A stretch of DNA of 39,961 nucleotides from a virus: the IMG/VR virus record IMGVR_UViG_3300002835_000441, positions 1 through 39,961 of that record, one strand, 5' to 3'. A program made the translations under genes and the position numbers. The notes under the pieces were generated by a model. It was not told the DNA's origin and ran no database searches. It saw only the letters and a program-made list of their open reading frames with translations. This document shows positions 13,116-36,223 of this stretch, piece after piece. Position 1 is the stretch's first letter, and each line of letters begins with the position of its first letter.

Positions 13116-14309
13116 ATGTTAAAGTATGATTTCTTCGAAGATATTTTTTTAGATTTTTATCCTATTAGCATCACACGAGGTTTTCCCTTACAGCCTCAAG
13201 ATCGTTCAGCATCTTCGAATTTTTATGAAATTCTTACAAAGAACGACCCACTCACTGAAAATCAATCTAGGTACATTCTAAAGATTTTAGACAAATATAA
13301 AATTATTTCAGAAAAATTTGGAATAACTTACAAAAGCGATCTCGAAACTGCTAAATGGAAATTGCCTTTTAGGACTATCGACTACACGAAGAAAATAAGT
13401 GTAGAAAAAGATGAAGAAAATCGTATTTGGGTCACTGCTAAGTTTCCGTATTCGTTCAAATCTAAATTTGAAACTGAATTTTTAGTAGATAGTCATTCCG
13501 CTGGACATTCAAAGTGGGATGCTGATCGAAAAGTTAGAAAAATTCCCTTCTATAGTATCAATACAATTTCATTCTATAATTATTGTAAGAGTAACGACTT
13601 TGAAATCGACGAAACTTTCCTCTCTGCTATGAATGAAGTGGAAGAAATTTGGAACAGGACAGAAGAGATCGAACATTCGTGCGCAATTGCCAACGGGGAA
13701 GTTTGCTTGATAAATGCAAATGACGAAATTTTAGATTTTTGGAACTCCAACAGAACTGGCGTTATGACTAATGATTTATTTTTGGCAAAATCTATGGGAT
13801 TTTTGTTAAAACAGCCATCTAAAAAAATCACAGTACCTGAAATTATATCTTCGTCAAAAGAAAATATTTTTTGGATATCAGACTTTGATAAGTTTTTTTC
13901 CGTTGCCAAGGACTTGGAAGGAAAAATTTGTATATTGATTGATAGGGTTTCGTCTCGCCGAGATTTTTTAGAAGAATTCATTAATGCTGCTGATAAAAAT
14001 GGTATCTTGAGAGAAGAAATAAAAGTATGCCACCGAGAGTCTAATCAAGCAAATTCTGAATTTAACGATTGGGTTAAAGAAAATTCATTAGGTGGTAAAG
14101 TGGCTGATGGAAAATATTTAATTTTTAATCACAAGCCAAGCAAATGGTTGTTTCAGCAAGAAAATTCAGTTAAAATTATAGTTACCAACGGGCTATATAC
14201 CGATACCTCAACTTTTGTTAGAGATTGGATAAATCATCATCCTTGTGTTGTGTATCTCGGATCAGTAAAACCATCATTGCAAAAGGAAAAGAAGATTGTC
14301 GATCTGTAA
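13116..14309 (+). CDS. Protein of unknown function upstream of UvsW
   Basis: A 397-residue protein with its own promoter. No catalytic motif is recognised. Visible features are an N-terminal DFFEDIFLDFYPISITRGF segment, a helical stretch with QSRYILKILDKYK, and a C-terminal segment with IIVTNGLYTDTS and HPCVVYLGS strands that could be a Rossmann or helicase-like fold. It overlaps the TTG start of uvsW by 14 bases, so the two are probably co-translated. A UvsW partner in branch processing is a reasonable guess from context only. Confidence 0.7.
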   Translation: MLKYDFFEDIFLDFYPISITRGFPLQPQDRSASSNFYEILTKNDPLTENQSRYILKILDKYKIISEKFGITYKSDLETAKWKLPFRTIDYTKKISVEKDEENRIWVTAKFPYSFKSKFETEFLVDSHSAGHSKWDADRKVRKIPFYSINTISFYNYCKSNDFEIDETFLSAMNEVEEIWNRTEEIEHSCAIANGEVCLINANDEILDFWNSNRTGVMTNDLFLAKSMGFLLKQPSKKITVPEIISSSKENIFWISDFDKFFSVAKDLEGKICILIDRVSSRRDFLEEFINAADKNGILREEIKVCHRESNQANSEFNDWVKENSLGGKVADGKYLIFNHKPSKWLFQQENSVKIIVTNGLYTDTSTFVRDWINHHPCVVYLGSVKPSLQKEKKIVDL

Positions 14310-15750
14310 ATTAATTATCAAGGATGAGGTCAATATCAAAGTCGATGGTCTCAGCGTAGAGACTAGACGAAAAATTGTCAATAAATTAAAGTTTGATCTT
14401 CCCTACGCTCGTCATATGCCGGCTTATAAATTAGGCAGATGGGACGGGACTAAAACCTATTTTGGTATAGGCGGATCTGGGTACTTAGCTCATTTAGATG
14501 TAATATTACCAATTGTCGAAGATGCTGGATATGATATAGAAGTTGAAGATCTTAGAGAGCATAAGACACTGAGCTTTGCCGAAATTAATGAAAATTATTG
14601 GGCAGATAAAAATAAGACATGGCCCAAGGGACATCCTGCCGAAGGGCAACCTATAGTCTTACGAGATTATCAATACGACGTTATCAACAGATTTACTAAG
14701 AATCCTCAGAGCCTCCAAGAAATCGCTACAGGGGCAGGCAAAACGATTACTACAGCGACACTAAGTCACTTATGTGAACCTTATGGGCGAACAATGGTCA
14801 TTGTTCCTAACAAGTCGTTAGTTGTTCAAACTGAAGAAGATTATAAAAATTTAGGTCTTGATGTTGGAGTATATTTTGGTGATAGAAAAGAATTAAATCG
14901 TACACATACAATCTGTACCTGGCAAAGTCTTAACATTTTAGAAAAGAAAAGTTATGATGATGATACTCTGTCATTGGCCGAATTCTGTGAAGGAGTCGTG
15001 GCAATCATTGTCGACGAAGTACATCAGGCAAAGGCAGATGTATTGACAAGACTTTTAACACAAAACTTTCGTAATTGCGCTATCCGATGGGGGTTGACTG
15101 GAACTATACCCAAAGAACAGTGGGAATTTCAAGGCCTTCTCGCTAGCATAGGACCGGTAATAGGGAATGTATCTGCACATGATTTGCAAGAGAAAGGTGT
15201 ATTGGCTCAATTAGATATACAAATTCTTCAAACGAACGACATTGAAGTTTTTAGAACTTACGCAGAAGAATATTCCTGGTTAGTAACAGATCCGAATAGA
15301 TTAAATTGGATATCTGAAAAAATAAAAGAATTTTCGCTCACCGGAAATACTTTAGTGTTAGTGAACAGAATCGATACAGGTAATAAGTTAATCGAAAAAA
15401 TCCCAGGCGCAGTTTTTATATCAGGAGCTGTAAAATTAGACGATCGAAAAGAAGAATATGATGAAATTAAAACAAGCGATGGCAAGATTATTGTGGCGAC
15501 TTATGGTGTGGCCGCTGTGGGTATTAATATTCCAAGGATTTTTAATTTGGTTCTTATTGAGCCCGGAAAGAGCTTTGTCCGCGTTATCCAAAGCATTGGA
15601 CGAGGCATTAGAAAAGCAGAAGACAAAGACTTCGTCCAGATCTGGGACATAACCAGCGCCTGCAAATATGCCAAGCGACATCTTACAGAAAGAAAAAAAT
15701 ATTATAAGGAAGCAAAATATCCTTTTACAATTACCAAGGTAACAATATGA
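14296..15750 (+). CDS. uvsW: UvsW DNA/RNA helicase
   Basis: A 484-residue superfamily 2 helicase; T4 UvsW unwinds R-loops and branched DNA and shifts the phage from origin- to recombination-dependent replication. An N-terminal substrate-binding domain (about residues 1-95, with the YKLGRWDGTKTYF block) is followed by Walker A ATGAGKT (144-150), the DEVH box (240-243), motif III LTGT (267-270) and motif VI QSIGRGIRK (432-440). The start is TTG, with family-typical N-terminal sequence right after it, and lies inside the end of the preceding gene. A good match in length to T4 UvsW (about 500). Confidence 0.95.
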   Translation: MSICKLIIKDEVNIKVDGLSVETRRKIVNKLKFDLPYARHMPAYKLGRWDGTKTYFGIGGSGYLAHLDVILPIVEDAGYDIEVEDLREHKTLSFAEINENYWADKNKTWPKGHPAEGQPIVLRDYQYDVINRFTKNPQSLQEIATGAGKTITTATLSHLCEPYGRTMVIVPNKSLVVQTEEDYKNLGLDVGVYFGDRKELNRTHTICTWQSLNILEKKSYDDDTLSLAEFCEGVVAIIVDEVHQAKADVLTRLLTQNFRNCAIRWGLTGTIPKEQWEFQGLLASIGPVIGNVSAHDLQEKGVLAQLDIQILQTNDIEVFRTYAEEYSWLVTDPNRLNWISEKIKEFSLTGNTLVLVNRIDTGNKLIEKIPGAVFISGAVKLDDRKEEYDEIKTSDGKIIVATYGVAAVGINIPRIFNLVLIEPGKSFVRVIQSIGRGIRKAEDKDFVQIWDITSACKYAKRHLTERKKYYKEAKYPFTITKVTI

Positions 15751-17681: not shown

Positions 17682-17688
17682 CCTGTTA

Positions 17689-20008: not shown

Positions 20009-20718
20009 ACGAAATTTCTATTGTAACGTTTAAGTGGAAAAAACCGTCGGCGGGGTATAAACTTAAATCTCCTGTAGAATATTCTGCTGAACACGTAAAC
20101 ATTCTTTATAGATCTATCAAACGTAACACTACTGTACCTTTCAAATTTATATGTGTAACCGACGACACATCTGGATTAGATAGTGAAATTCAAGCCGTTG
20201 AACTCTGGGACAAATATAAAAGTTTAGGCGGATGTTACAATAGGCTTTACATTTTTAGCGAACAAATAAAATCTATTTTAGGTGAAAGATTTATATGTAT
20301 TGATCTTGATTGTGTAATTGTTTCTAATATTGATACTATTTTAACCCGTAAAGAAGATTTTATTATAAACAAATTTATCAGCAAAGGCGGACACAATCAA
20401 ATTTACAACGGTGGTTTAATTTTAATGACTGCCGGGTCTAGACAAAAAGTCTGGAATGATTTTGATCCGAATAAATCTTTGACATTGTTAGATAAGTTAA
20501 GAAACGAAAAAAATCTAGTAGGTTCAGATCAAGCATGGATACAGGTTAGTCTTGGCGAAAGTGAACCAATGTTTACTGAAGATGATGGTGTTTATGATTA
20601 CAGCTTTTTGACTGATAGAAAATTACCCGACAATGCAAAAATGATTTTCTTTCCTGGAAAAGTTGATCCCTCACAAGAAAAAGATAAGAACGAATGGGTA
20701 GCCAAACATTGGAGTTAA
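20005..20718 (+). CDS. Glycosyltransferase, GT-A fold
   Basis: A 237-residue transferase with DxD at D100-L-D102 (ICIDLDCVIVSN), a QIYNGGLILM block after it, and a Gly/Asn-rich GSDQAWIQ segment typical of GT8-like and related nucleotide-sugar transferases. Ends with FFPGKVDPS, an active-site closing segment. It overlaps the methyltransferase by ATGA and is one base from the next gene. Confidence 0.8.
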   Translation: MNEISIVTFKWKKPSAGYKLKSPVEYSAEHVNILYRSIKRNTTVPFKFICVTDDTSGLDSEIQAVELWDKYKSLGGCYNRLYIFSEQIKSILGERFICIDLDCVIVSNIDTILTRKEDFIINKFISKGGHNQIYNGGLILMTAGSRQKVWNDFDPNKSLTLLDKLRNEKNLVGSDQAWIQVSLGESEPMFTEDDGVYDYSFLTDRKLPDNAKMIFFPGKVDPSQEKDKNEWVAKHWS

Positions 20719-20719
20719 T

Positions 20720-21973
20720 ATGGGATTAGAAACAAATTATTTAAAATTTATAAACAGTTTAATTGGCCAAGCTAGTGGAAACCGAATGCTTGAACTCGGA
20801 AATCAATCTCTTAATCATAGTAAGAGACCAGAGAAAACAGGTAAAGAGTATTTTACCAATAATGGGTTTGATCATATTTCGGTAGACAGGAATGGATTAG
20901 ACGGCGCTGTAAAAAAAGATCTAAGAAATATATCTGAATTCAGAGAATATGTAGATTCGTTTGATGTAGTTACTAATTGTGGAGTAACTGAACACGTAGA
21001 ACCTATTGCCAACCAACATACAGTGTTTAGAATAATTCACGATAGTCTTAAAGTAGGAGGGATTGCCTTTCATATACTTCCTGATTCTGACGAAGCAGAA
21101 AATAACCGATGGGGACCGCACTGTAGATTTTGGTATAATGAAGGTTTTTTCAAAAATTTATGTATTCTAAATAATTATGAACTTTTAAAAATTGACAAAA
21201 TCGATAGTTTAATTGCAGTAGCATATAAAAAAACTTCTCCAATAAAATTTACAGACGACATAGAGTCTTTTCAAAAAAATATTGTTGTAATAGGCCATAA
21301 TAAACCATTGTTACATGAAGCGGTGTATCCGAACACAATGGTCACTAGAGGAAAAGTTTCTGAGCTTAATAGTTGTTTGTATAAAACAATTACCGAAGAA
21401 ATTGTTGGAGATTATATAGAATGCGGAACCTACAGAGGAGGACTATCTGCATTAATGTTAGATACTATTCTTTATCACAGACTAGACAAAAAATTGTGGA
21501 TTTATGATACATTTCAAGGTATGTCAGAGCCTACTGAACTTGACATAAGCAATAAAAATGAAATAGCTAAATCAACTTTTGAAGCCTCAAAAAATCAATC
21601 AACAGGGTATGCAGACTGGTGTAAAGCAACTATAGATATCGTTCAATCTACATTAAGTATTGTCAGTCACGAATATGAAAAATACGCTCATCTAATAATA
21701 GGTAAAGTTGAAGACACACTCAAATATGAAAATAACATACCTAAAAATATTGCATTAATGAGATTAGATACCGATTGGTACGAATCTACTAAAATCGAAT
21801 TAGAAAAGTTCTATCATTTATTGTCAATCGGTGGAGTTGTAATAATCGATGATTATAGATTATGGCAAGGACAAAAATTAGCGGTGGATGAATTTTTTGA
21901 TAAATTAGATAAAGATTCATATAAGTTCACCGATGGAGATGATGGGTCTCTTATTATAACAAAATTAGGATAA
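20720..21973 (+). CDS. Double methyltransferase: SAM methyltransferase fused to TylF/MycF-type O-methyltransferase
   Basis: A 417-residue protein with two methyltransferase domains. The N-terminal one (about 1-175) has a weak motif I (MLELGNQSL) and FDVVTNCGVTEHV (82-93) followed by a typical LKVGGIAFHILPDSD segment. The C-terminal one (about 200-415) matches TylF/MycF macrocin O-methyltransferases: YIECGTYRGG (232-241), RLDTDWYEST and VIIDDYRLWQGQ carrying the metal-binding Asp residues. Probably two methylations of one sugar or glycan. No frameshift is needed, so the fusion looks real. Confidence 0.82.
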   Translation: MGLETNYLKFINSLIGQASGNRMLELGNQSLNHSKRPEKTGKEYFTNNGFDHISVDRNGLDGAVKKDLRNISEFREYVDSFDVVTNCGVTEHVEPIANQHTVFRIIHDSLKVGGIAFHILPDSDEAENNRWGPHCRFWYNEGFFKNLCILNNYELLKIDKIDSLIAVAYKKTSPIKFTDDIESFQKNIVVIGHNKPLLHEAVYPNTMVTRGKVSELNSCLYKTITEEIVGDYIECGTYRGGLSALMLDTILYHRLDKKLWIYDTFQGMSEPTELDISNKNEIAKSTFEASKNQSTGYADWCKATIDIVQSTLSIVSHEYEKYAHLIIGKVEDTLKYENNIPKNIALMRLDTDWYESTKIELEKFYHLLSIGGVVIIDDYRLWQGQKLAVDEFFDKLDKDSYKFTDGDDGSLIITKLG

Positions 21974-21975
21974 AA

Positions 21976-22557
21976 ATGTCTAAAAAGAAAAAATACACCG
22001 AAGCGTTAGATCCGAATAAACCTCACTTAGGTGGGAATTTTATCGAAGTAAATCCCAGCACTTACTGTCCATCAGTGTGGTATTATATACTTAGAAAGTA
22101 TAATGTGAAATCTGTTATGGATGTCGGATCCGGTAGAGGCCACGCAGCCAAGTGGTTTTTTGATCAAGGTCTCGACACGACAGCAGTTGACGGTCTAGAA
22201 GATAATGTTAAAAATGCAGTGTATCCTACAATTTTATGTGATTTAACTGAAGGGTCATATAGCAAGAGTGTAGATCTAGTAAATTGCATAGAAGTAGTCG
22301 AACATATCGAAGAAAAATATATTAACAATTTACTAGATACTGTTTGTTCTGGAAAATACCTTTTTATGACTCACGGACTTCCGGGACAAGAAGGACATCA
22401 TCATGTGAATTGTCAACCCACAGAATATTGGATAGATCATTTAGCTAGTAGAGGATACAAAGAACTTGCGGAAGATTCTCGTGAATTGCGAAGGATCGCT
22501 TCATCTACAAAGGCACATCATATCAAAGATACAGGAATGTTGTTTATAAAGGTATAA
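21976..22557 (+). CDS. SAM-dependent methyltransferase, class I
   Basis: A 193-residue methyltransferase with motif I VMDVGSGRGHAA (47-58), VDLVNCIEVVEHIEE (motif IV/post), and a LFMTHGLPGQEGHHHVN segment usual in sugar and small-molecule methyltransferases, including the conserved His run. It starts 2 bases after the double methyltransferase stop. Probable target is a sugar or glycan; substrate unknown. Confidence 0.8.
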   Translation: MSKKKKYTEALDPNKPHLGGNFIEVNPSTYCPSVWYYILRKYNVKSVMDVGSGRGHAAKWFFDQGLDTTAVDGLEDNVKNAVYPTILCDLTEGSYSKSVDLVNCIEVVEHIEEKYINNLLDTVCSGKYLFMTHGLPGQEGHHHVNCQPTEYWIDHLASRGYKELAEDSRELRRIASSTKAHHIKDTGMLFIKV

Positions 22558-22558
22558 T

Positions 22559-23875
22559 ATGTGTGGATTCGGCGTAACATCGAGATCGGGATTATCGAAA
22601 GTAAACAAATTTTGTCAACGGCGAGGTCCCGACCTTACTAATTCAAAAACTATCAACGGTGTAGAATTTTTACATAATCTTTTACATATCACCGGAAATG
22701 TAACTCCGCAGCCATTTGTTAAGGGAGATGTTGTCTGTACTTTCAATGGTGAAATTTACAATTATAGGGCATTTGGATCTTATCAAAGCGATGGAGAATG
22801 TTTAATTGATCTTTATTTAGATCAAGGAGATGAATTTATAAAATCTCTCGATGGTGAGTTTGCTATTTGTCTTGTGGATTTTAAAAATAACAAAGTAATT
22901 ATTGCTACAGATACATTTGCCTGTAAGCCTCTTTGGTACGAATTTAACCGATCAGAATTTTGCGCAGCCTCATATAACAGTCAACTGCAAGGTCTAGGAT
23001 TTAATAACGGTAAAAAATTAAAAGGCAATACCACAGAAGTTTACAATCTCCGAACTGGCGAAAAAATCACACAGTACACGAATAGGCAGTTTGATTTAAA
23101 TCAATTTAAAATGTCTTTCGATGGTTGGATAGAAGCGTTTACCGCTAGTATCAAGAAAAGAACAGCTAATACTACACATCGTATGTTCTGCGGTATGAGT
23201 TCAGGATATGACAGCGGCGCTATAGCCTGCGAACTGCAAAAACAAAATGCCAACTTTAAAGCATATACGATTGTCAATAACGAAAATCCTGAAATATTAA
23301 GTGCGAGATTACAAAAAATTAAAATCAATGAGGCATTTTCTTTGTCCTCAGAAGAATTCCAACAATGGAAACGAGAATTAAATTCTAATTGCGAAAATTT
23401 TAATTATAATGGTTATGATATAAAAGGTGATCAAGCCTCAATGGGATTATCTGCCATTTGTAATCGGGCTAGGCAAGACAACAGAAGAATTTATTTTTCA
23501 GGTCAAGGCGCCGATGAAATAATCAGCGACTACGGGTTTGGTGGTAGAAAAATATACAAGCACAGCGGATTTGGTGGTTTGTTTCCGGAAGATTTAAACG
23601 GATTCTGGCCTTGGAATAGTTTCTTTGACGGCACCCAAGTTCAATATCTTAATAAAGAAGAATACGTAGCAGGACATTTTGGCATAGAAACACGATATCC
23701 TTTTTTAGATAATAATTTGGTTCAAGAATTTTTGTGGTTATCTCCTAAGTTAAAGAATAGCAAATATAAGAGTTGTTTGGACGAATATCTTAAAGTAAAT
23801 GGATTTCCTTATGAAAGCGGTGAAAAAAGAGGATTCCATGTAACTGAAAAAGGCGGAAAGAGTAAACGAGTATGA
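22559..23875 (+). CDS. Asparagine-synthetase-like glutamine amidotransferase
   Basis: A 438-residue protein of the AsnB type. Cys2 is the glutaminase nucleophile (MCGFG), followed by RRGPD, FNGEIYNY, SDGE and LDGEFA blocks. The ATP pyrophosphatase domain has SSGYDS (214-219) where SGGLDS is usual, then FSGQGADEI (313-321). In surface-glycan clusters such proteins often amidate uronic acids, which suits the dehydrogenase here. It is shorter than E. coli AsnB (554). Whether the changed loop keeps ATP binding is unclear. Overlaps the next gene by ATGA. Confidence 0.85.
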   Translation: MCGFGVTSRSGLSKVNKFCQRRGPDLTNSKTINGVEFLHNLLHITGNVTPQPFVKGDVVCTFNGEIYNYRAFGSYQSDGECLIDLYLDQGDEFIKSLDGEFAICLVDFKNNKVIIATDTFACKPLWYEFNRSEFCAASYNSQLQGLGFNNGKKLKGNTTEVYNLRTGEKITQYTNRQFDLNQFKMSFDGWIEAFTASIKKRTANTTHRMFCGMSSGYDSGAIACELQKQNANFKAYTIVNNENPEILSARLQKIKINEAFSLSSEEFQQWKRELNSNCENFNYNGYDIKGDQASMGLSAICNRARQDNRRIYFSGQGADEIISDYGFGGRKIYKHSGFGGLFPEDLNGFWPWNSFFDGTQVQYLNKEEYVAGHFGIETRYPFLDNNLVQEFLWLSPKLKNSKYKSCLDEYLKVNGFPYESGEKRGFHVTEKGGKSKRV

Positions 23876-24522
23876 GAAATGATATTACAGTTGTGATTGC
23901 CGGAGATTCAAATTTTAAACCTTATGTAGAACAAGGCATACGATGGACAGAAAAATTAGGTTACCCAATCTTAGCTTATGATTTAGGTAATTTAGGTTTC
24001 GGAAAACCTTTCAGCGGTAGATTCAGCGATGCTGCCAATGCTAAAATTCCCTGTAAACCACATATTATAGCAGATGCTCTTGAATCAATTAAAGACGGAG
24101 AATATCTAGTATGGCTCGATGCCGATGCCTTGATATATCAGAACATAGATGAAATTGCCCAAGACTACGACATAGGAGTTACGGTCAGAGCCCCTAAAGC
24201 TGTTGAACATCAACTACCGATCAATGCTGGTATAGTCTTTATAAGAAAAACTATGGCTGCAAAAGAGTTCGTAGAGAGATGGAAAGCATTATCTGATCAA
24301 GGTGTCAGTGATCAACCGCCGTTGAATGAATTATGTAAAGTAAACACTCAGGATCGAGATAACACAGTATTGAGAGATGGAGTGAAAATAAAAGTTTTTA
24401 AATGTGAAGTATATAACAACTTTTACAAACAAGGAAAACAAGCTGACAAAGTTAGACCAGTGGGCGTAAAAATTGTTCATTATAAAAGTAAATTGAGACA
24501 CCTTTATCCTCTTGGAAAATAA
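23872..24522 (+). CDS. Glycosyltransferase, GT-A fold
   Basis: A 216-residue transferase with DxD D83-A-D85 (WLDADALIYQNID), PINAGIVFIRK and SDQPPLNEL blocks, and a VKIVHYKSKLR end, all common in GT77-like and related nucleotide-diphospho-sugar transferases. Linked to the amidotransferase by ATGA, one base from the epimerase gene. Likely one of the later steps of glycan assembly. Confidence 0.8.
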   Translation: MRNDITVVIAGDSNFKPYVEQGIRWTEKLGYPILAYDLGNLGFGKPFSGRFSDAANAKIPCKPHIIADALESIKDGEYLVWLDADALIYQNIDEIAQDYDIGVTVRAPKAVEHQLPINAGIVFIRKTMAAKEFVERWKALSDQGVSDQPPLNELCKVNTQDRDNTVLRDGVKIKVFKCEVYNNFYKQGKQADKVRPVGVKIVHYKSKLRHLYPLGK

Positions 24523-24523
24523 T

Positions 24524-25357
24524 ATGAAGAAAATTTTAATTACCGGAAACTCCGGATATATAGGATCACACCTTACAAAAATTTTAACAGAACAGAATGT
24601 GTATGAACTGTATGGTTTAGATAAGGATGTTCCAAAAATTGGTATTACAAATTTTGTAGTAGAAGATATTAGAAATTCTGGAGAATGGATTTACGCAGAT
24701 ATCGAATTTGATTGTGTAGTTCATTTGGCAGCAGAAGTTGCCGTAGGAAGAAGCGTATTGAATCCTACACTATATTATTTGACAAATACCTTAGGAACAT
24801 TGAATGTATTGAAGAATCTAAAGTTTAAAAGATTTGTCCACGCCAGCACAGGATCAGCCGGTCCTATGAATAATCCCTATGGTATAAGCAAACGTGGCGC
24901 TGAAGATGTTGTAAGACAATTTTGTACAGAACAAAATATACCTTATACTACTTTTAGATTTTATAACGTAACAGGCACCGATGGAATTGAACCTACAAAC
25001 GTTGATGGATTAATGTGGAATCTTATGAATGCTCAAAAAACGGGTGAGTTCAATCTGTTCGGAGACGATTACAATACTGAAGACGGATCGGCAATCAGAG
25101 ACTATACACACGTGAATGAAATATGTTATAGTGTTATTAAAGGAATAGAATATTCTTCTAATCAAATAGAAAATCTTGGTCACGGTGTAGGAACCAGCGT
25201 AAAACAAATGATTGAAATTTATAAACGTGTTAACGATTGTGATTTCACTGTAAACATTTGCCCAAGAAGGTCTGGCGATTTGGAAAGAAGTGTTTTAGAT
25301 AATCCTTCTACATTTATGCAAAAATTGTATACGATGGACGATTTACTAAGGGTATGA
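24524..25357 (+). CDS. NAD-dependent nucleotide-sugar epimerase (GalE-like)
   Basis: A 277-residue extended short-chain dehydrogenase. GNSGYIGSH (8-16) is the NAD site, the YxxxK pair is Y119/K123 in PYGISKRGAE, and FRFYNVTG and VNEICYSVIKGIEY are typical of UDP-glucose 4-epimerases. The ATG at 24524 is preferred to one at 24512 because it gives a separate start just after the upstream stop. It closes the second glycan block. Substrate may be UDP-glucose, UDP-GlcNAc or a related sugar. Confidence 0.87.
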   Translation: MKKILITGNSGYIGSHLTKILTEQNVYELYGLDKDVPKIGITNFVVEDIRNSGEWIYADIEFDCVVHLAAEVAVGRSVLNPTLYYLTNTLGTLNVLKNLKFKRFVHASTGSAGPMNNPYGISKRGAEDVVRQFCTEQNIPYTTFRFYNVTGTDGIEPTNVDGLMWNLMNAQKTGEFNLFGDDYNTEDGSAIRDYTHVNEICYSVIKGIEYSSNQIENLGHGVGTSVKQMIEIYKRVNDCDFTVNICPRRSGDLERSVLDNPSTFMQKLYTMDDLLRV

Positions 25358-25358
25358 T

Positions 25359-25640
25359 ATGGGATCTTTAACACCAGGGGCAACATATATCTACGAACGA
25401 AACGGCGAAGAGATTTATGCTAGAGAAGTTGGTAAAACTGAACGCAGGTTAATTGGATACCAATACGAAAATAAAATAGACCCAAGAACTAACGACGGTC
25501 GTCCTTTATTTGAACATCTCAAAGAAGATAAACTCTGGGGTGAAATTCGTCGTGCTGCAAAATCAAATGAGGCCTTGCAAAAAGCTCTAGAAAGTGTTAA
25601 AATATTATATTGTTTGAGTAAACAAGATGGGACAAAATAA
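25359..25640 (+). CDS. Small conserved phage protein before gp62
   Basis: A 93-residue protein, starting 2 bases after the epimerase stop and overlapping gp62 by 14 bases. An N-terminal beta-like TYIYERNGEEIYAREVG and a helical WGEIRRAAKSNEALQKALESVKILY end are visible. No known activity. The overlap with gp62 suggests it belongs to the replication genes rather than the glycan block. Confidence 0.75.
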   Translation: MGSLTPGATYIYERNGEEIYAREVGKTERRLIGYQYENKIDPRTNDGRPLFEHLKEDKLWGEIRRAAKSNEALQKALESVKILYCLSKQDGTK

Positions 25641-26136
25641 ACACGTAGATCTATTCAAAGATATGATTCCAGCTGTAGATATGGGAGTCAAAGAGCTTTG
25701 GGATGCGGCCACAGACGATGGTCGAAAAGAGATCAAAGGAGATCTTTGGAATCTCAATAGATATATTAGCAACGTTGCTACAACTGCAAATCCCTATGTG
25801 CAGGTTAAACGTCCTTCGAGAGAAGAAAAAGAACATTTTCTTCTAACAGTTAACGAATACTATAATAAAAATTGGAACGAAATATCTAAGCATCCTAAAC
25901 TGCAATGGATGAGTTTGTGTGTATGCAGTAAGGAAAACAAACAAACATACTTTCACGAATGGTTACCTCTTAAGAAAGAAAAGAATAAAAAAGAGGAATT
26001 TTTAGCTCAACTTTTTCCTAATATGAAAAGGTCAGACATTGAAACACTTGCAATTACTACAACCGACAAAGAAATTAAAAAATACTGCGAGGACCTTGGT
26101 TGGGACAAAAAAACAATCAATGGAATTAAGTTATAA
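25627..26136 (+). CDS. gp62: Clamp-loader small subunit, gp62-like
   Basis: A 169-residue protein; T4 gp62 (187) is the subunit that joins the gp44 ATPase to load the gp45 clamp. Support is the opening VDLFKDMIPAV, which matches the LFKDxI start of the family, the central helical region with PKLQWMSLCV, and a C-terminal MKRSDIETLAITTTDKEIKKY. No gp44 is in the window. Identity is by family pattern, so moderate. It overlaps the next gene by 17 bases. Confidence 0.72.
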   Translation: MGQNKHVDLFKDMIPAVDMGVKELWDAATDDGRKEIKGDLWNLNRYISNVATTANPYVQVKRPSREEKEHFLLTVNEYYNKNWNEISKHPKLQWMSLCVCSKENKQTYFHEWLPLKKEKNKKEEFLAQLFPNMKRSDIETLAITTTDKEIKKYCEDLGWDKKTINGIKL

Positions 26137-26803
26137 TTGCGAATATTGTTCGAAAGTTTTTGCCAAAGAAAAAACATTGGCAGTGCATATTTGTGAACAA
26201 AAGCGTCGACATCTAAGTAAAACTGAAAAGCATGTTCAAGCGGGTTTATTAACCTATCAAAGATTTTACGATATTACACAAAAAGGTAAATCAAAAAAAA
26301 CATTTGATGATTTTGCTTCTAGTCCGTACTATACTGCTTTTATAAAATTCGGAAGCTTTTTAGTCAATACTGCACCCATTCACCCTGAACGATTTATTGA
26401 CTTTGTGGTCAAGAGTGGGATAAAACTCGATCATTGGTGTAGAGACGAGATATATGAAACATATATCATAGATTTAATCAAATCTGAACCATCAGAGAGT
26501 GCAGTACAACGATCAATAAAAACTATGATGGATTGGGCTGATTCAAATAATTCGGTGTGGGAACACTACTTTCAATATGTAAATTTAAACAGAGCGACCC
26601 ATGATATAAAAGAGGGATTAGTAAGTCCTTGGCTGGTATTAAATACAAAGTCTGGTAAAGAAATGCTTAAAAAAATGAATGACGAACAGTTGGAAATTAT
26701 ATCGTCGACAATAGATCCAACATTCTGGGTTAGAAAATTCAAAGCATTACCAGCAGACATTGAACTAGTAAAAGATATCGTCAGGGAGGCGAAAATTTTA
26801 TAA
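26120..26803 (+). CDS. Zinc-finger phage protein of unknown function
   Basis: A 227-residue protein. ATG at 26120 is chosen because the finger starts right after it; an earlier ATG at 26039 would run inside gp62. C7-X2-C10-X12-H23-X-C25 forms a C2HC zinc finger, followed by a basic EQKRRHLSKTEKH stretch, good for nucleic-acid binding. The rest is helical with many Trp. I recall similar proteins near gp62 in marine T4-like phages, without a tested function. A replication or transcription accessory role is possible. Shares its stop with the next start (TAATG). Confidence 0.78.
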   Translation: MELSYNCEYCSKVFAKEKTLAVHICEQKRRHLSKTEKHVQAGLLTYQRFYDITQKGKSKKTFDDFASSPYYTAFIKFGSFLVNTAPIHPERFIDFVVKSGIKLDHWCRDEIYETYIIDLIKSEPSESAVQRSIKTMMDWADSNNSVWEHYFQYVNLNRATHDIKEGLVSPWLVLNTKSGKEMLKKMNDEQLEIISSTIDPTFWVRKFKALPADIELVKDIVREAKIL

Positions 26804-27027
26804 TGCCTAAACGAAAACAAGAACCAGTTGTTGTAGAAGAAGAATTAAAAGATAACGAAGAATTTATTTCTAGAGATGATATCGATATTGAAGTTAGACT
26901 CACGGAAGATAACACAGTAATGGTACAATTTTCTGGGTTTGACGACGACGAAGATGCAGAAGAGTACGCTCACTTTCTTGCGGAAACATTGCCTTTATTA
27001 TTATTCGAAAGCACAAGGTTACAGTAA
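26803..27027 (+). CDS. Small acidic protein upstream of mini polymerase
   Basis: A 74-residue, strongly acidic protein with a VEEELKDNEEF N-terminal stretch, a beta segment DIEVRLTEDNTVMVQFSGF and an acidic helical end. It is joined by TAATG on both sides to the zinc-finger gene and to the DnaE-like gene. No known domain. It may form a complex with one of them. Confidence 0.75.
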   Translation: MPKRKQEPVVVEEELKDNEEFISRDDIDIEVRLTEDNTVMVQFSGFDDDEDAEEYAHFLAETLPLLLFESTRLQ

Positions 27028-27605
27028 TGCCTGATATTGATATAGATTTCGTTGACAGAGACCAAGCCCTTAAATTTTTTAAGACAATACCTGCCAGTCG
27101 ATTAGAAAAAGAAAAATTAATTAAACATAATACAGGTGTATATTTTCATCAGGTGCCTGTATGCGCAGAGGAAAATCTCTGCGCAGTTCCATATAATGAA
27201 GCAGAAGAAAAAGGTTTCTTTAAAATAGATTTTCTTAATGTTGGAATATACAAGGGTGTTCGAGACGATGAACACTTAGAACAACTAATGAATCAGGAGC
27301 CATTATGGGATCTTCTAGAAGACGACTCTTTCGTCAGCTTGCTCTTTCACGTCAACGGGCATGGTGGTATATTGCGACAAATGAAACCGAAGAATGTGGA
27401 ACAATTGGCAGCGATATTGGCGATGATTCGACCTGCCAAGAAATACCTAGTTGGAGAAAGTTGGTCGAAGATCTTGAACGAGGTTTGGCAGAAACCAGAA
27501 AGCGATGAATACTATTTTAAGAAAAGTCATGCCACTGCATACGCCATGGCTATCATCGTTCAAATGAATTTAATTTGTGAACAGATTAGTTACGAATATA
27601 GTTAA
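27027..27605 (+). CDS. Miniature DNA polymerase III alpha (C-family)-like protein
   Basis: A 192-residue protein that retains the core marks of bacterial DnaE in order but in far fewer residues. PDIDIDF (2-8) has the two catalytic Asp (as E. coli D401/D403). HNTGVYF (34-40) fits HAGGV; FKIDFLNV (65-72) has the third catalytic Asp (as D555, here D68); AAILAMIRPAKK (128-139) fits VALFRPGP, and FKKSHATAYAM (164-174) fits FNKSHSAAYAL. The PHP, tau-binding and clamp-binding regions are absent. Catalysis is not assured; a structural or primer-handling role is possible. Confidence 0.8.
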   Translation: MPDIDIDFVDRDQALKFFKTIPASRLEKEKLIKHNTGVYFHQVPVCAEENLCAVPYNEAEEKGFFKIDFLNVGIYKGVRDDEHLEQLMNQEPLWDLLEDDSFVSLLFHVNGHGGILRQMKPKNVEQLAAILAMIRPAKKYLVGESWSKILNEVWQKPESDEYYFKKSHATAYAMAIIVQMNLICEQISYEYS

Positions 27606-27973
27606 GTTGCTTTTCTAATTAATGTAATAGATTTTCGTTTAATTCTTTTAACTATAATATCATTTAAGCTAGTACACGGTCCTAACAAAACTTTAACATC
27701 TTTTGTACTAAAGTTTTTAATAGCGTACTTGAATGGGCCAATTTCTCGATGCAAGAAAATATTGATAGGAATCTGACGGTTACTTTCCCACCACCAAGCC
27801 TCACCGAGTTCTAAGAACTTAGTTTTTTCCCAATCGCTACGAATAGATGTATAATCATAGAAACTGGTTATTTGCTGATCTTGATTGATAATAACACCCA
27901 CGTACTCTTGGGCTACGTGTGTTATTATGCTGATAAAAGGAAAGTTGTCTTGTAAGTTTTCTGTAATTCTCAT
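27602..27973 (-). CDS. Conserved unknown phage protein (minus strand)
   Basis: A 123-residue protein. The start at 27973 is chosen because a longer frame from 28009 runs over the late promoter and start of the opposite gene. It has an N-terminal FPFISIITHVAQEYVGVIINQDQ beta stretch split by charged turns, a WWWESNRQIPINIFL block (Trp-rich) and a basic KRIKRKS tail. It resembles a protein I recall from other marine T4-like phages without a known function. Its 3' end overlaps the mini polymerase gene by 4 bases tail to tail. Confidence 0.72.
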   Translation of the reverse strand: MRITENLQDNFPFISIITHVAQEYVGVIINQDQQITSFYDYTSIRSDWEKTKFLELGEAWWWESNRQIPINIFLHREIGPFKYAIKNFSTKDVKVLLGPCTSLNDIIVKRIKRKSITLIRKAT

Positions 27974-27974
27974 A

Positions 27975-27982
27975 GATAAATA
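27975..27982 (+). promoter_or_regulatory. T4-type late promoter box (GATAAATA)
   Basis: GATAAATA ends 21 bases before the ATG at 28004, with a TAAGG ribosome site between. A late structural gene follows, which fits the promoter class. Confidence 0.6.
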
Positions 27983-28003
27983 TGCATAAAGGGCCGCTAA
28001 GGT

Positions 28004-29080
28004 ATGCAACTTAACTCAGTTTATTTATATCCAAACAAAGTTGATGTATTTACAAATCTCGGCGCCTGGAAAACAGAGAGGTATCGTAGAGTGTATAACA
28101 GAAACTTAAAAATATACAGAAGTGTAGATAACAGGATAGATTTCCAGGTAAGAAATTCCGACGAAAAGGCAACTAGTATAGAAAACTATTATATAGTTTT
28201 TAAATTAGTTTCAGCCGATACACAAGAATTAATCATCGAGAAAGATTGTACAGTACAGTCCTCGTCGACTGGTAAAGTTTATGTTATTCTCACTGAAAAT
28301 CAAGTTAGAGAACTAGATTTAGGTTTCTATAACTATTCTTTGACACAAGAGTCTAGAACCTATATAGATAATGATAATTATACAGTTTCGTCAAAATCTC
28401 CGCTATATGTCGATGCACAATACGAAGTATCGGGACTGATCGAAGTAAACGGTGATATCAGTGGAAATTTAGTTTCTAGTAAAGTTATTAATAAATTTGA
28501 TTATGTTAATCCGGCTACTACAGGGTATAACGATCCTGTATACTATGTTAGCAGTATTATAAACGCTAATCCAGAAATAACAACAGGAAATTCATTACAT
28601 ACATTTCAACTTTATATGAACAATTATACGGGAACTATTACTGTTCAAGGAAGTTTAAGTGAAGGCGGAGTTCCTCACGTTTGGTCCGATGTGTCTGTGA
28701 AAAATTACAATGAATCTAATCTAGAATATATTAATGTAACAGGAAAGTGGAATTGGTTAAGAATCAAACATCAACCAACTACTCCTAATACCATAGCTAG
28801 TTTTACTATACAACAAACTATCTTGGGAAATTACATTGTTAATATTGGTAATAGAGGAAAATCTTATTCGGTAGGACAGATATTAACTATCTTAGGATCA
28901 AACTTGGGAGGAGAATCTCCTGCCAATGATCTCAATATTACAGTTACCGCTACTAATTCCTTGGGCGGGATAACCGGAATCACCTATTCTGGTGTAAGTT
29001 ATAACGGTGTTCGAACCTATACGCTTTCACCAAATCAAAATATCAATTCCGGTGCCGTTGACAAGATATTGTATAGATAG
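28004..29080 (+). CDS. Virion structural protein, probable tail or neck component
   Basis: A 358-residue beta-rich protein. The first half starts with a LYPNKVDVFTNLG segment and is rich in Asn, Ser, Thr and Tyr. Residues 283-325 contain GKSYSVGQILTILGSNLGG and ANDLNITVTATNSLGGITGI, a GxxYxVGxxxTIxGSxLGG/ANDLxxTVT repeat type seen in cyanophage tail-fibre and appendage proteins. Start after a late promoter box supports late expression. Exact place in the virion is not known. Confidence 0.78.
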   Translation: MQLNSVYLYPNKVDVFTNLGAWKTERYRRVYNRNLKIYRSVDNRIDFQVRNSDEKATSIENYYIVFKLVSADTQELIIEKDCTVQSSSTGKVYVILTENQVRELDLGFYNYSLTQESRTYIDNDNYTVSSKSPLYVDAQYEVSGLIEVNGDISGNLVSSKVINKFDYVNPATTGYNDPVYYVSSIINANPEITTGNSLHTFQLYMNNYTGTITVQGSLSEGGVPHVWSDVSVKNYNESNLEYINVTGKWNWLRIKHQPTTPNTIASFTIQQTILGNYIVNIGNRGKSYSVGQILTILGSNLGGESPANDLNITVTATNSLGGITGITYSGVSYNGVRTYTLSPNQNINSGAVDKILYR

Positions 29081-29092: not shown

Positions 29093-30115
29093 ATGACTCT
29101 AGTCGTAGATAAATTTCGTTCGTTACTCCCACCACGTGCAAAAAGCAGTCCGAGTGGGTGGACATCATTTAATGCACCTTGTTGCCAGCATCGAGGACAT
29201 AGTCCAGATACTCGTAAACGGGGAGGTATCAGGTTTGACGGTAACGGTATAGTCTATAATTGTTTTAACTGCAAATTTACCACAGGCTGGCAACCTGGAT
29301 CCCCGTTTGGCGAAAAGATGAAAAGCCTCAGTCGTTGGCTAGGCGGCGGCGAGGATGACATAAAGTCCATGGTTTTTGAAGCAATGAAGACCGAAGCCGA
29401 AGATTATCAAGCTGCAGAATATCAACCAACGATAGAATTTGAAAATAAACCCTTGCCTGAACACTCAATGAGTTTAGTAGATTGGGGTGACATTATTGAA
29501 GGTGAAATCGAAGAAAAGATCGGTTCTCAGTTTGTAGAAGTTTTACAGTATCTAATAAGTAGAGGATATGATAATCCTTTTGACTACGATTTTTATTGGA
29601 GCCCTACGTCCGGATATATTGATAGAGTCATCGTTCCATTTCGTTGGCAAGGACGCATTGTAGGTAATACTGCTAGAAAAATCACTGACGGTAAACCTAA
29701 ATATCTATCGGATCAACATCCGCACTTTGTTTTCAACTTTGATAAACAAAAAGAAGATCAGAAGTATATATTTGTATGTGAAGGTCCTTTTGATGCACTA
29801 TCTATAGGCGGTGTGGCTTTATTAACTAACGATATTGCAGATCAACAGGCTAGGATTATCAATAGTTTAGGTGCAGAAGTTATTGTTGTTCCGGATCAAG
29901 ACGAAGCCGGGCTTCAACTAATTAATAAAGCTATTCATTATAATTGGAGTGTAGCATTTCCTAATTGGGATAATGATGTCAAAGACTGTGCAGATGCCGT
30001 GCAGAAATACGGTAAACTGTTTGTGATAGTTGATTTAATTAAAACCAGTTTAAAAGGGGAGATCAAAATAAAAATGCACAAGAACCATTTAGAAAAAAGG
30101 ATAAGAGATGTTTAA
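29093..30115 (+). CDS. gp61: DNA primase gp61
   Basis: A 340-residue primase that makes RNA primers for the lagging strand with the gp41 helicase. The N-terminal zinc domain shows C30/C31, H33, C57 and C60 (NCFNC). The TOPRIM domain has E230 in VCEGPFDAL and the D268-Q-D270 pair in VVPDQDEAGL. T4 gp61 has 342 residues, so length is full. It has its own consensus promoter with almost no leader. The end overlaps a small gene that couples it to the carbamoyltransferase. Confidence 0.94.
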   Translation: MTLVVDKFRSLLPPRAKSSPSGWTSFNAPCCQHRGHSPDTRKRGGIRFDGNGIVYNCFNCKFTTGWQPGSPFGEKMKSLSRWLGGGEDDIKSMVFEAMKTEAEDYQAAEYQPTIEFENKPLPEHSMSLVDWGDIIEGEIEEKIGSQFVEVLQYLISRGYDNPFDYDFYWSPTSGYIDRVIVPFRWQGRIVGNTARKITDGKPKYLSDQHPHFVFNFDKQKEDQKYIFVCEGPFDALSIGGVALLTNDIADQQARIINSLGAEVIVVPDQDEAGLQLINKAIHYNWSVAFPNWDNDVKDCADAVQKYGKLFVIVDLIKTSLKGEIKIKMHKNHLEKRIRDV

Positions 30116-30212
30116 GATATTGTTGTGGCCGTTTAAGAGAATCAAAGAATATTTTGAAATTAAAAAAAGAATTAAAGAATTAAAAGAACGGGATCCTTTT
30201 ATCTACAAATGA
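30108..30212 (+). CDS. 34-residue basic peptide gene between gp61 and carbamoyltransferase
   Basis: Starts with ATG inside the end of gp61 and ends with TGA overlapping the next ATG (ATGA), so it links the two genes by translational coupling. The product MFKILLWPFKRIKEYF... is an amphipathic or short membrane-leaning N-terminus followed by a highly basic and acidic helix and a RDPFIYK end, which I recall as a recurrent ending in small phage proteins. Function unknown. Confidence 0.7.
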   Translation: MFKILLWPFKRIKEYFEIKKRIKELKERDPFIYK

Positions 30213-31681
30213 TTACCTGGGGAATATCAGCAACCAGCCATAATGCTGCATTGGCAGTATTTGAAGATAGCGAGTTACTATTCGCTAGCGATTCCGAACG
30301 ATTTAGCAAAATTAAAAATGATCCAAATCTCAACGAAGATCTTATTGAATATGCTAGAATGATCGGAGGATTTCCGGACCTAGTATGTTGGTATGAAAAA
30401 CCTTGGTTAAAAACTCTAAGACAATTTTTTGCCGGTCAGGGACTACAAGATAATAATATTAAAAAATATCTAGCGAAATACGAAATAAAAGCTCCAGTTA
30501 AAACTTTTAAACATCATCTTACTCACGCTGCTAATGCTTATTATACAAGTCCTTACGATTCGGCATGCGTTATTATCATAGATGCCATCGGAGAATTTGA
30601 AACCTTAACTATATGGCAAGCTGAGGGTAAAAGACTTAAAAAAATCTATAGTAGTATCTACCCAGACAGTCTTGGATTGTTTTATTCTGCAATGACTCAA
30701 CGGTGCGGTCTTAAACCAAATGAAGAAGAATATATTTTAATGGGTATGGCCGCATATGGCGATCGCAAACGTTTATATAAAGATATAATAGAAGATTTTG
30801 TAACATTTCCTCATTCCGAAAGTTACAATCCTATTATGTTTAAGAAAAATCTACATAGGGGATGCAATTGGTGGAGACCTGATCTACAATCTGATCAAGA
30901 TCGATTTGATATAGCAGCCGCTACCCAATACACATACGAACAATCATTTACACGCATACTGCAAATGGCAAAAAGTTTGACCGGCAGTGATAATCTTGTT
31001 ATCGGTGGAGGGTGTTCTCTTAATTGTTCTGCAAATCCTATAGCGTTTGATTATTTTGATAATGTATACATACCGCCAGCCCCCGGAGACAACGGCAGCA
31101 GTATAGGTGCAGTTTTAGCATATCAAAAAAATCATTTAGATAACTTTACACCTTATTTAGGTAGTAACATATCGTCTAAGGTATCAAATGAAGTAATAGT
31201 CGATTATTTGATCAAAGAAAAGATATGCGGATTAGCTCGTGGACGAGCAGAGGTTGGGCCTAGAGCATTGGGTAATCGGAGCCTGTTAGCAGATCCTAGA
31301 GATCCTAAAATAAAATCTTTGGTTAACAATATAAAACAAAGAGAACAATTTAGACCCTTTGCTCCTGCCATCTTAGAAGAATTTGCTAATGAATATTTCT
31401 ATATGCCTTCTAAGAAAACTCCTTATATGCAGTTTACAGTTCTCTGCCGCAGACCAGATCTTTTTCCTGCGATAGTTCATAAAGATGGAACAAGTAGAGT
31501 TCAAACTGTAGGAAAGAATGACAATCCAGAATTTAGAAAATTATTAGAGATTTGGCACTCAAAGACTGGGTGCCCGATGTTGTTGAATACCAGTCTAAAT
31601 GTAAAAGGATCTCCTATGGTAAATGATATCAGCGATGCCTTTAATTGGTCTAAGACCTATGGTTTACCTGTGTTTAATTAG
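30209..31681 (+). CDS. Carbamoyltransferase, NodU/TobZ family
   Basis: A 490-residue O-carbamoyltransferase. The N-terminal Kae1-like domain has the metal motif H102-X3-H106 (KHHLTHAANAYY), D125 in IIIDAIGEFE and a GGGCSLN block; the C-terminal YrdC-like part has RGRAEVGPRALGNRSLLADPR and RPFAPAILEE, which bind the carbamoyl-adenylate. Such enzymes carbamoylate sugars or nucleotides, so it may act on the glycans made by the blocks to the left or on virion DNA. Located between gp61 and gp41, not in the glycan block itself. Length agrees with the family (about 500-570). Confidence 0.92.
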   Translation: MITWGISATSHNAALAVFEDSELLFASDSERFSKIKNDPNLNEDLIEYARMIGGFPDLVCWYEKPWLKTLRQFFAGQGLQDNNIKKYLAKYEIKAPVKTFKHHLTHAANAYYTSPYDSACVIIIDAIGEFETLTIWQAEGKRLKKIYSSIYPDSLGLFYSAMTQRCGLKPNEEEYILMGMAAYGDRKRLYKDIIEDFVTFPHSESYNPIMFKKNLHRGCNWWRPDLQSDQDRFDIAAATQYTYEQSFTRILQMAKSLTGSDNLVIGGGCSLNCSANPIAFDYFDNVYIPPAPGDNGSSIGAVLAYQKNHLDNFTPYLGSNISSKVSNEVIVDYLIKEKICGLARGRAEVGPRALGNRSLLADPRDPKIKSLVNNIKQREQFRPFAPAILEEFANEYFYMPSKKTPYMQFTVLCRRPDLFPAIVHKDGTSRVQTVGKNDNPEFRKLLEIWHSKTGCPMLLNTSLNVKGSPMVNDISDAFNWSKTYGLPVFN

Positions 31682-31698: not shown

Positions 31699-33144
31699 AT
31701 GATTAAAGATTACGGATACGAAGTACAAAAATTATATCTCGAACTAATGCTGGCAGATGCCGAAATATTTGTTCGTTGTCAAGGCATTTTCGATCATACA
31801 CTATTTGAAAGAAAATTGCAAGATGCCGCAGAATTCATTAATGTCTATGCCAAAGAATATTCTGTAATGCCAGACTTTGACATGGTCAATGCAAGTTGTA
31901 GAACCGACTTGAAAAAACCTGAAGACATTAAAGAAGGACACAAAGACTGGCTTATGGATGAGTTTGAAAACTTTACTCGACATAAAGCTCTTGAACGTGC
32001 AATCATTGAATCAGCAGATCTTTTGGAAAAGAAAGACTACGGTCAAGTTGAATCTAAAATCAAAGAAGCTGTACAGATTTCATTAACTAAAGATCTTGGT
32101 ACTGACTACTTTGAAGATCCCCGAGCACGACTAATGCGAATCAAAGATAAGAACGGACAAATATCCACAGGTTGGCCAAGTCTTGATCGCAGACTGTTTG
32201 GTGGTATGAACAGAGGCGAATTGAATATCTTTGCTGGCGGGTCAGGTGCAGGTAAATCTTTGTTCTTAGCAAACTTAGGTGTGAATTGGTGTTTGCAAGG
32301 ATTGAATGTGTTGTATCTAACATTAGAGCTTTCAGAAGATCTAGTTGCGATGCGTATTGATGCAATGACCACTGGTGTTTCAACTAAAGAGATTTTTAAA
32401 GATCTCGAAAACGTTGAAATGAAAGTTAGAGTCATTGGAAAGAAATCAGGAAAACTACAGATCAAATATATGCCATCGGGAAAGACTGCTAACGATCTCA
32501 GAGCGTATATGAAAGAGTTTGAAATCAAAACAGGATCTAAAATTGATGTGCTGTTAGTAGATTATTTAGATTTGTTGATGCCTGCTAGCCGTAAGATCAG
32601 TGCAGAAAATCTGTTTATCAAAGACAAATACGTATCAGAAGAACTTCGTAATCTAGCAATGGAAAAACAATGTATCTTTGTTACAGCGGCACAGTTGAAT
32701 CGTGGTGCAGTTGAAGAAGTTGAATTCGATCACAGTCATATTTCAGGCGGACTTAGCAAGATTCAAACAGCAGATAATGTGTTTGGTATCTTTACTAGTC
32801 GTGCTATGCGTGAACGTGGTCGCTATCAGATACAATTGATGAAGACTCGTAGCAGTAGCGGTGTTGGACAGAAAGTAGATTTAGAATTTAATCTAGAAAC
32901 ATTGAAAATCAGCGATTTGCCAGAAGAAGAACAAGAAAGCCATAATGGTGCGAGCAGAGGCGCAAGTAGTATAATTGATTCAATAAAACGTAAGACAGAA
33001 GTGCAAAAAGTAGACCAAGAAACAGGTGAGATTAATCCTACCCAAGGCGCTAGTTTAGGCAAAGTTCGGGCCAACGTAGAATCGACAAAACTACGTGAAA
33101 TCTTGAACAGCATGGGTGGAGATGATGAAGACTCACCGTTTTGA
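31699..33144 (+). CDS. gp41: Replicative DNA helicase gp41
   Basis: A 481-residue DnaB-type hexameric helicase that unwinds the fork and binds gp61 primase. Walker A is GGSGAGKS (180-187), Walker B ends in LLVD (D288 in VLLVDYLDLLMP), AAQLNRG is the H3 region and an RSSSGVGQ segment follows it. The N-terminal 130 residues form the helical primase-interacting collar. C-terminal tail ends acidic (MGGDDEDSPF), fitting interaction with gp61 or gp59. Length is close to T4 gp41 (475). Confidence 0.95.
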   Translation: MIKDYGYEVQKLYLELMLADAEIFVRCQGIFDHTLFERKLQDAAEFINVYAKEYSVMPDFDMVNASCRTDLKKPEDIKEGHKDWLMDEFENFTRHKALERAIIESADLLEKKDYGQVESKIKEAVQISLTKDLGTDYFEDPRARLMRIKDKNGQISTGWPSLDRRLFGGMNRGELNIFAGGSGAGKSLFLANLGVNWCLQGLNVLYLTLELSEDLVAMRIDAMTTGVSTKEIFKDLENVEMKVRVIGKKSGKLQIKYMPSGKTANDLRAYMKEFEIKTGSKIDVLLVDYLDLLMPASRKISAENLFIKDKYVSEELRNLAMEKQCIFVTAAQLNRGAVEEVEFDHSHISGGLSKIQTADNVFGIFTSRAMRERGRYQIQLMKTRSSSGVGQKVDLEFNLETLKISDLPEEEQESHNGASRGASSIIDSIKRKTEVQKVDQETGEINPTQGASLGKVRANVESTKLREILNSMGGDDEDSPF

Positions 33145-36000: not shown

Positions 36001-36001
36001 A

Positions 36002-36208: not shown

Positions 36209-36211
36209 CCA

Positions 36212-36220: not shown

Positions 36221-36223
36221 ATC

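What the first reader, a model, noticed from the sequence alone, without database searches (positions are those of the whole stretch)
27027..27605. Miniature C-family DNA polymerase (DnaE-like) of 192 residues with all three catalytic aspartates
The protein keeps, in DnaE order, PDIDIDF (two catalytic Asp), HNTGV, FKIDFLNV (third Asp), a RPAKK helix and FKKSHATAYAM, while bacterial DnaE spreads these over several hundred residues. PHP, tau and clamp-binding parts are gone. A stripped-down palm/finger is unusual beside a T4 replisome, which uses a B-family polymerase. It could be a primer-extension enzyme, a template-switching factor or an inactive decoy. I recall similar conserved short proteins in marine T4-like phages, but I know of no function.
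Basis: partly seen in the sequence, partly recalled or inferred. Interest (0 to 1): 0.8.

Follow-up and report, generated by a model that had tools for sequence, protein, structure and literature searches.

The report
Half of a split mini DNA polymerase
This phage gene makes the metal-binding half of a very small bacterial-type (family C) DNA polymerase whose other half is encoded by a separate, distant gene in related phages; the split enzyme was predicted in 2021, and I found no report that it has been tested.

Summary
The 192-aa ORF at 27027-27605 is real and conserved (phrog_11778; 63 GenBank phage records, hundreds of IMG/VR contigs). In 134 distinct homologues D3, D5, D7, H34, K66, D68, R135, K138 and H168 never vary. 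An AlphaFold2 model (pLDDT 92.4) aligns over 188 of 192 residues to residues 461-841 of Taq Pol III alpha (Z 10.1; best unrelated chain 3.4).

It is only half an enzyme. The GRGS nucleotide-binding half of the palm is a second, unlinked gene (Mini-2, 150-185 aa, phrog_11127), outside this contig. Mini-2 ends 0-7 residues after the DnaE 'FLN' position (E. coli ~393); Mini-1 begins near residue 400. Fusing the two in silico raises the DnaE score from about 18 bits each to 48.9 (E 4.9e-12), continuous across the junction. All nine reference phages tested carry both halves plus a B-family polymerase; PHP and HHH_6 are absent from 16 genomes tested.

Best reading: a two-chain, minimal family C nucleotidyltransferase/polymerase serving a T4-type replisome as an accessory polymerase. 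Iyer et al. 2021 already described this split enzyme in jumbo phages, so this is a new environmental member; activity and role are untested in the literature I could search.

The parts
27027..27605 (+). Mini-1: C-terminal half of the split minimal Pol III alpha (catalytic Asp triad D3, D5, D68; K66; finger residues R135, K138, H168), 192 aa
27027..27050 (+). MPDIDIDF: first two catalytic Asp (D3, D5) plus D7; equivalent of Taq DnaE 461-468 (MPDIDTDF)
   Evidence: the split point of the palm lies immediately before it
27219..27236 (+). FKIDFL: K66 and third catalytic Asp D68 (DnaE KxDFLG motif)
27423..27443 (+). MIRPAKK: finger helix end, R135 and K138 invariant (DnaE ALYRPGP)
27516..27551 (+). 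FKKSHATAYAMA: finger motif, H168 invariant (DnaE FNKSHAAAY)
26803..27027 (+). 74-aa acidic ORF whose stop overlaps the Mini-1 ATG by one base; relatives in 63 of 83 loci, abutting Mini-1 in 41; candidate translationally coupled partner (inferred)
   Evidence: no family match in PHROGs
26120..26803 (+). Conserved protein with an N-terminal C2H2-like zinc finger (phrog_11058, unknown function), upstream neighbour (present in 83 of 83 loci)
25627..26136 (+). Conserved protein of unknown function (phrog_11758)
27602..28009 (-). Convergent conserved ORF of unknown function (phrog_11637), overlapping the 3' end of Mini-1 by 4 bases; the conserved part starts at an internal ATG
29093..30115 (+). DNA primase (gp61-like), downstream in the same conserved block
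31699..33144 (+). DnaB-like replicative helicase (gp41-like)
14296..15750 (+). UvsW-like helicase, upstream flank of the replication/recombination block (here separated by a glycan-gene island)

Best explanation
The gene encodes the C-terminal half (Mini-1) of a minimal two-chain family C DNA polymerase. Mini-1 carries the three metal-binding Asp of the Pol-beta-like palm and a shortened finger; a second protein (Mini-2), expected elsewhere in this phage's genome and outside the contig, carries the GRGS nucleotide-binding half of the palm. The two chains are inferred to assemble into one active site and add dNTPs to a primer end. PHP, thumb, part of the fingers, and the clamp-, OB- and tau-binding parts are missing, so it should be distributive and rely on phage partners (candidates: clamp loader near Mini-2; zinc-finger protein, SSB, primase and helicase near Mini-1). 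Most likely role (inferred): an accessory polymerase beside the B-family replicase, extending primers or filling gaps in recombination-dependent replication. Shown here: homology, fold, split point, conservation, co-occurrence. Inferred: assembly, catalysis, role.
For: Catalytic residues invariant in 134 of 134 Mini-1 and R86, E90, G121, G123-S126, S130 in 76 of 76 Mini-2. Mini-1 model aligns to DnaE 461-841 (Taq) / 400-781 (E. coli), 188 residues, Z 10.1, with unrelated chains at 3.4; Mini-2 model aligns to E. coli 276-379 (Z 5.7) and Mtb 304-399 (Z 7.2), all top chains C-family: complementary, non-overlapping. Same six genomes: Mini-1 profile 17.8 bits, Mini-2 18.1 bits, joined 48.9 bits, continuous over the junction. 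Co-occurrence: 59 records with Mini-2 against 63 with Mini-1 by plain tblastn, 9 of 9 reference phages by profile. Correlated divergence, Mantel r 0.83. Gene context UvsW ... zinc finger - Mini-1 - primase - helicase; Mini-2 near the gp44 clamp loader. Intact B-family polymerase. Same conclusion in Iyer et al. 2021.
Against: Nothing biochemical. No thumb and no HHH motif, so DNA binding and processivity are doubtful. The halves could be structural or regulatory while keeping metal or NTP binding. Mini-2's GS segment is predicted with low confidence on its own; no complex could be modelled with the tools. Mini-2 was not found in a 280-kb contig that has Mini-1 (G002), which may be incomplete. 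The window itself holds no Mini-2, so the pairing in this phage is inferred from relatives such as G003 (Mini-1 79% identical).
Confidence: 0.75

Rival explanations
1. Catalytically dead or regulatory remnant: the pair binds NTP or DNA but does not polymerise, for example as a decoy of host Pol III or a structural replisome part.
For: Loss of thumb, HHH and part of the fingers; an intact B-family polymerase is already present.
Against: All three Asp, the KxD lysine, the finger Arg/Lys/His and the GRGS motif are invariant across 134 and 76 sequences down to about 32-40% identity, which is not expected of a dead scaffold.
Confidence: 0.12
2. A two-chain nucleotidyltransferase with another substrate (non-templated tailing, end repair, NMP transfer to protein or RNA), using the same Pol-beta-like fold.
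For: Pol-beta-fold enzymes are often not templated polymerases (general knowledge); template-gripping parts are mostly lost.
Against: The finger residues specific to family C are retained (R135, K138, H168) and the genes lie in replication blocks.
Confidence: 0.13
3. Mini-1 works alone as a complete stripped-down palm/finger.
For: The model is confident on its own (pLDDT 92.4) and holds all three Asp.
Against: It lacks the GS-motif part of the palm; that part exists as a co-occurring gene cut at the complementary position.
Confidence: 0.04

Closest known systems
Split minimal DNA polymerase III alpha of group 2.2 jumbo phages (Iyer et al. 2021, PMC7824862); PHROGs 11778 (this half) and 11127 (other half)
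   Same: Same protein family, same two-gene split into NTP-binding and Mg/template-binding parts, distant genes, accompanied by a B-family polymerase
   Different: This instance is on a 40-kb uncultivated T4-like contig; the partner gene lies outside it. Exact split point, residue invariance and structural mapping are added here
Bacterial DnaE (DNA polymerase III alpha, family C)
   Same: Colinear palm and finger motifs; predicted fold aligned over nearly all of Mini-1
   Different: DnaE is one chain of about 900-1200 residues with PHP, thumb, full fingers, clamp- and tau-binding parts; here about 350 residues in two chains
PHP-less single-chain phage DnaE-like polymerases (e.g. L225; Streptomyces phage NootNoot relatives)
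   Same: Family C palm and finger; no N-terminal PHP domain in L225
   Different: One chain of about 560 residues (L225), not split, longer palm/thumb and finger regions
B. subtilis DnaE beside PolC (functional analogy, own knowledge)
   Same: A second polymerase beside the main replicase that extends primers and hands over
   Different: Full-length, single-chain enzyme with PHP; here the role is only inferred

Membership tests
Split minimal Pol III alpha of jumbo phages (Iyer et al. 2021; phrog_11778) | C-terminal chain with catalytic Asp triad and template-binding finger, standalone | tested here: met
Split minimal Pol III alpha of jumbo phages (Iyer et al. 2021; phrog_11778) | Second, distantly encoded chain with the NTP-binding GS motif in the same genome | tested here: inconclusive
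   Met in 9 of 9 reference phages and 7 large IMG/VR contigs, including G003 whose Mini-1 is 79% identical; the window is a 40-kb fragment without it
Split minimal Pol III alpha of jumbo phages (Iyer et al. 2021; phrog_11778) | B-family polymerase in the same genome | tested here: inconclusive
   Present in 16 of 16 relatives tested; no such gene seen in the 40-kb fragment, which is incomplete
Family C DNA polymerase (DnaE/PolC), fold and motifs | Pol-beta-like palm with PDxDxDF and KxDFLG Asp motifs and family C finger motifs in order | tested here: met
Family C DNA polymerase (DnaE/PolC), fold and motifs | GS (GRGS) motif in the same polypeptide | tested here: not met
   Supplied by a separate chain
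Full-length bacterial DnaE | PHP domain and HHH (HHH_6) motif | tested here: not met
   0 of 16 relatives' genomes carry PF02811 or PF14579; controls positive
Family C DNA polymerase, activity | Template-directed dNTP incorporation | not testable with these tools
   Needs purified proteins

The most novel reading that the evidence does not exclude
A family C polymerase active site assembled from two separately encoded short chains (GRGS on one, Asp triad on the other) works without PHP, thumb or clamp-binding parts as a second, primer-extending or gap-filling polymerase of a T4-type replisome: a minimal, possibly ancestral-like form of bacterial Pol III.
Probability: 0.4. Interest if true: 0.75.

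Novelty: new member of a known kind. Interest (0 to 1): 0.5.

Why it matters
If active, this would be the smallest family C polymerase known to me and one whose palm is built from two chains. It would show what the core of bacterial Pol III needs to work, explain why phages with a good B-family replicase keep a second enzyme, and test the proposal of Iyer et al. that such minimal versions model ancestral replicases. The two short proteins make it directly testable.

Tried and rejected
Single-protein phmmer against the PDB found nothing; only profiles did. Pfam alone is sub-threshold for Mini-1 (14.7 of 22 bits), so Pfam would have missed it. Intein or trans-splicing: rejected, since neither chain has room for it at the junction (Mini-2 stops 0-7 residues after FFK, Mini-1 starts at most about 19 residues before DxDID). 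Replacement of a dead B-family polymerase: rejected, the sampled B-family genes keep exo and polymerase motifs. Other DnaE pieces encoded elsewhere: no PHP or HHH_6 and no finger match beyond Mini-1 itself. Assembly artefact or pseudogene: rejected by conservation and dN/dS. A search for Vibrio-type relatives in IMG/VR returned none. The hydroxylase 8fhc hit in profile searches was set aside: it does not appear among the structural matches listed. The join test was not run with the halves in reverse order.

Full report
OBSERVATION. Window 27027-27605 (+) encodes MPDIDIDF...FKIDFL...IRPAKK...FKKSHATAYAM, 192 aa, as reported. PHROGs names it phrog_11778 'DNA polymerase' (E 8e-67), with weaker matches to long DnaE families. 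Pfam sees only the finger domain, below its cut-off. Homologues cover at least 80% of it in 63 GenBank phage records: RaK2, 121Q, GAP32, CBB, PA5oct/Paride, Atu_ph07, Phosso, XacN1, SCTP-2, Vibrio 2.275.O and others.

CONSERVATION. Among 134 unique sequences D3, D5, D7, H34, G37, P44, K66, D68, R135, P136, K138 and H168 are 100% invariant. The register against Taq DnaE is M461-P-D463-I-D465, so D3/D5 are D463/D465; D68 is the Asp of the KxDFLG motif (D618 in Taq by my own knowledge). dN/dS is about 0.09-0.12 against the two closest relatives.

FOLD. The AlphaFold2 model of Mini-1 has mean pLDDT 92.4. The top 13 Foldseek matches in the PDB are all bacterial Pol III alpha. VIA-align 2: 3e0d_A Z 10.1, rmsd 3.4, 188 residues aligned, model 1-190 to chain 461-841; 5lew Z 9.7; E. 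coli 2hnh Z 8.9 to 400-781; all 13 top rows are bacterial C-family polymerases (9qrn and 9qpc by their titles 'DNA polymerase') and the best unrelated chain has Z 3.4. The roughly 380 DnaE residues spanned are covered by 188: the thumb between the DxD strand and the HNTGV hairpin, and the stretch between RPAKK and FKKSH, are cut out (inferred).

THE MISSING HALF. DnaE's palm also needs the GRGS segment just before PDxDxDF, which Mini-1 lacks. A Pfam PF07733 search of relatives' genomes found a second small ORF in seven of them, matching only the first third of that domain. These ORFs (Mini-2, 150-185 aa; phrog_11127) end in ...WGVGRGSSVASYVLFLIGVHKIDSVKYxLPIxEFFK(GE)-stop. In 76 unique Mini-2 sequences R86, E90, G121, GRGS (123-126), V128 and S130 are invariant, and all end 0-7 residues after the FFK/FLN position. 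E. coli DnaE reads ...FLN at 393 and its PDxDxDF motif begins near 400, so the two genes divide the palm at one point with essentially nothing lost or duplicated.

JOIN TEST. Profiles from the same six genomes score 17.8 bits (Mini-1, E 0.02) and 18.1 bits (Mini-2, E 0.022) against Mtb DnaE. Joined as Mini-2 + Mini-1 they score 48.9 bits, E 4.9e-12, with one alignment running through the junction (Mtb 335-424). The reverse-order join was not run. The Mini-2 model (pLDDT 79.5, low confidence in the GS part) aligns to DnaE 276-379 (E. coli) and 304-399 (Mtb), all top chains being C-family (Foldseek E-values weak). Low confidence of the isolated GS strand is what a missing partner strand would give, but it is not proof.

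CO-OCCURRENCE. Plain tblastn with one environmental Mini-2 finds 59 records, very nearly the Mini-1 set; Phosso, missed there, is found by profile. By profile 9 of 9 reference phages have Mini-2. Of large IMG/VR contigs, G003-G006, G012, G013 and G015 have both; G002 (280 kb) and G001 (199 kb) show Mini-1 only and G014 (199 kb) Mini-2 only, and these may be incomplete. Divergence of the two proteins is correlated over 16 genomes (Mantel r 0.83, permutation p 0.0002), as shared inheritance alone would also give. The halves lie far apart, for example about 34 kb in RaK2.

CONTEXT. The block UvsW - (phrog_11758) - zinc-finger protein (phrog_11058) - small ORF - Mini-1 - convergent ORF (phrog_11637) - primase - helicase is kept from the window to RaK2: of 83 loci with Mini-1, the zinc-finger protein is in 83, the convergent ORF in 80, primase in 74 and helicase in 66, many loci being cut by contig ends. 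Mini-2 lies two to three genes from the gp44 clamp loader in RaK2 and Paride. All 16 relatives tested have a B-family polymerase, with intact exonuclease and polymerase motifs in those read. None has a PHP or HHH_6 domain, while control genomes do.

MECHANISM. Shown: family C homology, fold, complementary split, invariance of all catalytic positions on both chains, near-strict pairing. Inferred: the chains assemble into one two-metal active site and transfer nucleotides. With no thumb and no clamp-binding part the enzyme should be distributive and be brought to DNA by partners. The setting (recombination genes, primase, helicase, clamp loader) suits short synthesis: primer extension before hand-over to the B-family replicase, or gap filling at recombination intermediates. 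I put about 0.75 on a two-chain nucleotidyl-transferring enzyme with an accessory DNA synthesis role, and cannot choose between primer extension and gap filling.

WHAT IS KNOWN. Iyer et al. [quoted passage not shown] Genome papers had noted a truncated Pol III alpha of 172 aa, which by size and annotation is the Mini-2 half (CBB_328, PMC5259590), and an alpha subunit in Atu_ph07 (PMC6102473). Searches for later functional work found none in the open library, which lacks most subscription journals. This window is therefore a new environmental member of a described but, as far as I could find, untested family.

Noticed in passing
window 30209-31681 (+): A NodU/CmcH-type carbamoyltransferase gene (both Pfam domains) sits between the primase and helicase genes.
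   Followed up: no
window 34753-35439 (-): A Bax inhibitor-1 family membrane protein (PF01027, E 1e-53) encoded by the phage.
   Followed up: no
window 5978-13094 and 16492-25357: Large islands that look, from the translations, like sugar/glycan genes (nucleotidyl- and glycosyltransferase-like, NAD-dependent epimerases, methyltransferases, cupin), with an asparagine synthase-like gene confirmed by Pfam (22559-23875), lying between UvsY, UvsW and the Mini-1 block.
   Followed up: no
window 36000-39961: G+C rises to 0.48 from about 0.36 and the ORFs look unlike the rest; one has a weak Bestrophin-like match. Possibly a foreign segment or an assembly join.
   Followed up: no
L225 109-1779 (-), contig of L018: A single-chain, PHP-less family C polymerase of about 560 aa (PF07733 E 3e-38) on the same 36-kb contig as a Mini-1 gene; relatives in over 1100 phage records. 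Could be a chimeric contig or a phage with two kinds of mini Pol III.
   Followed up: partly
L197 5992-6564 (Atu_ph07, NC_042013.1): The GenBank gene FDI40_gp074 starts 81 bases inside the conserved ORF, so the annotated protein lacks the first two catalytic Asp; probably a start-site error.
   Followed up: no
L086 / W02 88.9-92.7 kb (Paride): The B-family polymerase frame runs from YGDTDS into an intein-like sequence, and the rest is in another frame about 3 kb on: probably interrupted by an intein or homing element.
   Followed up: no
IMG/VR contig of L015 (G002, 280 kb): Has Mini-1 and a B-family polymerase but no detectable Mini-2: incomplete, diverged or lost; a useful test case for obligate pairing.
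   Followed up: partly
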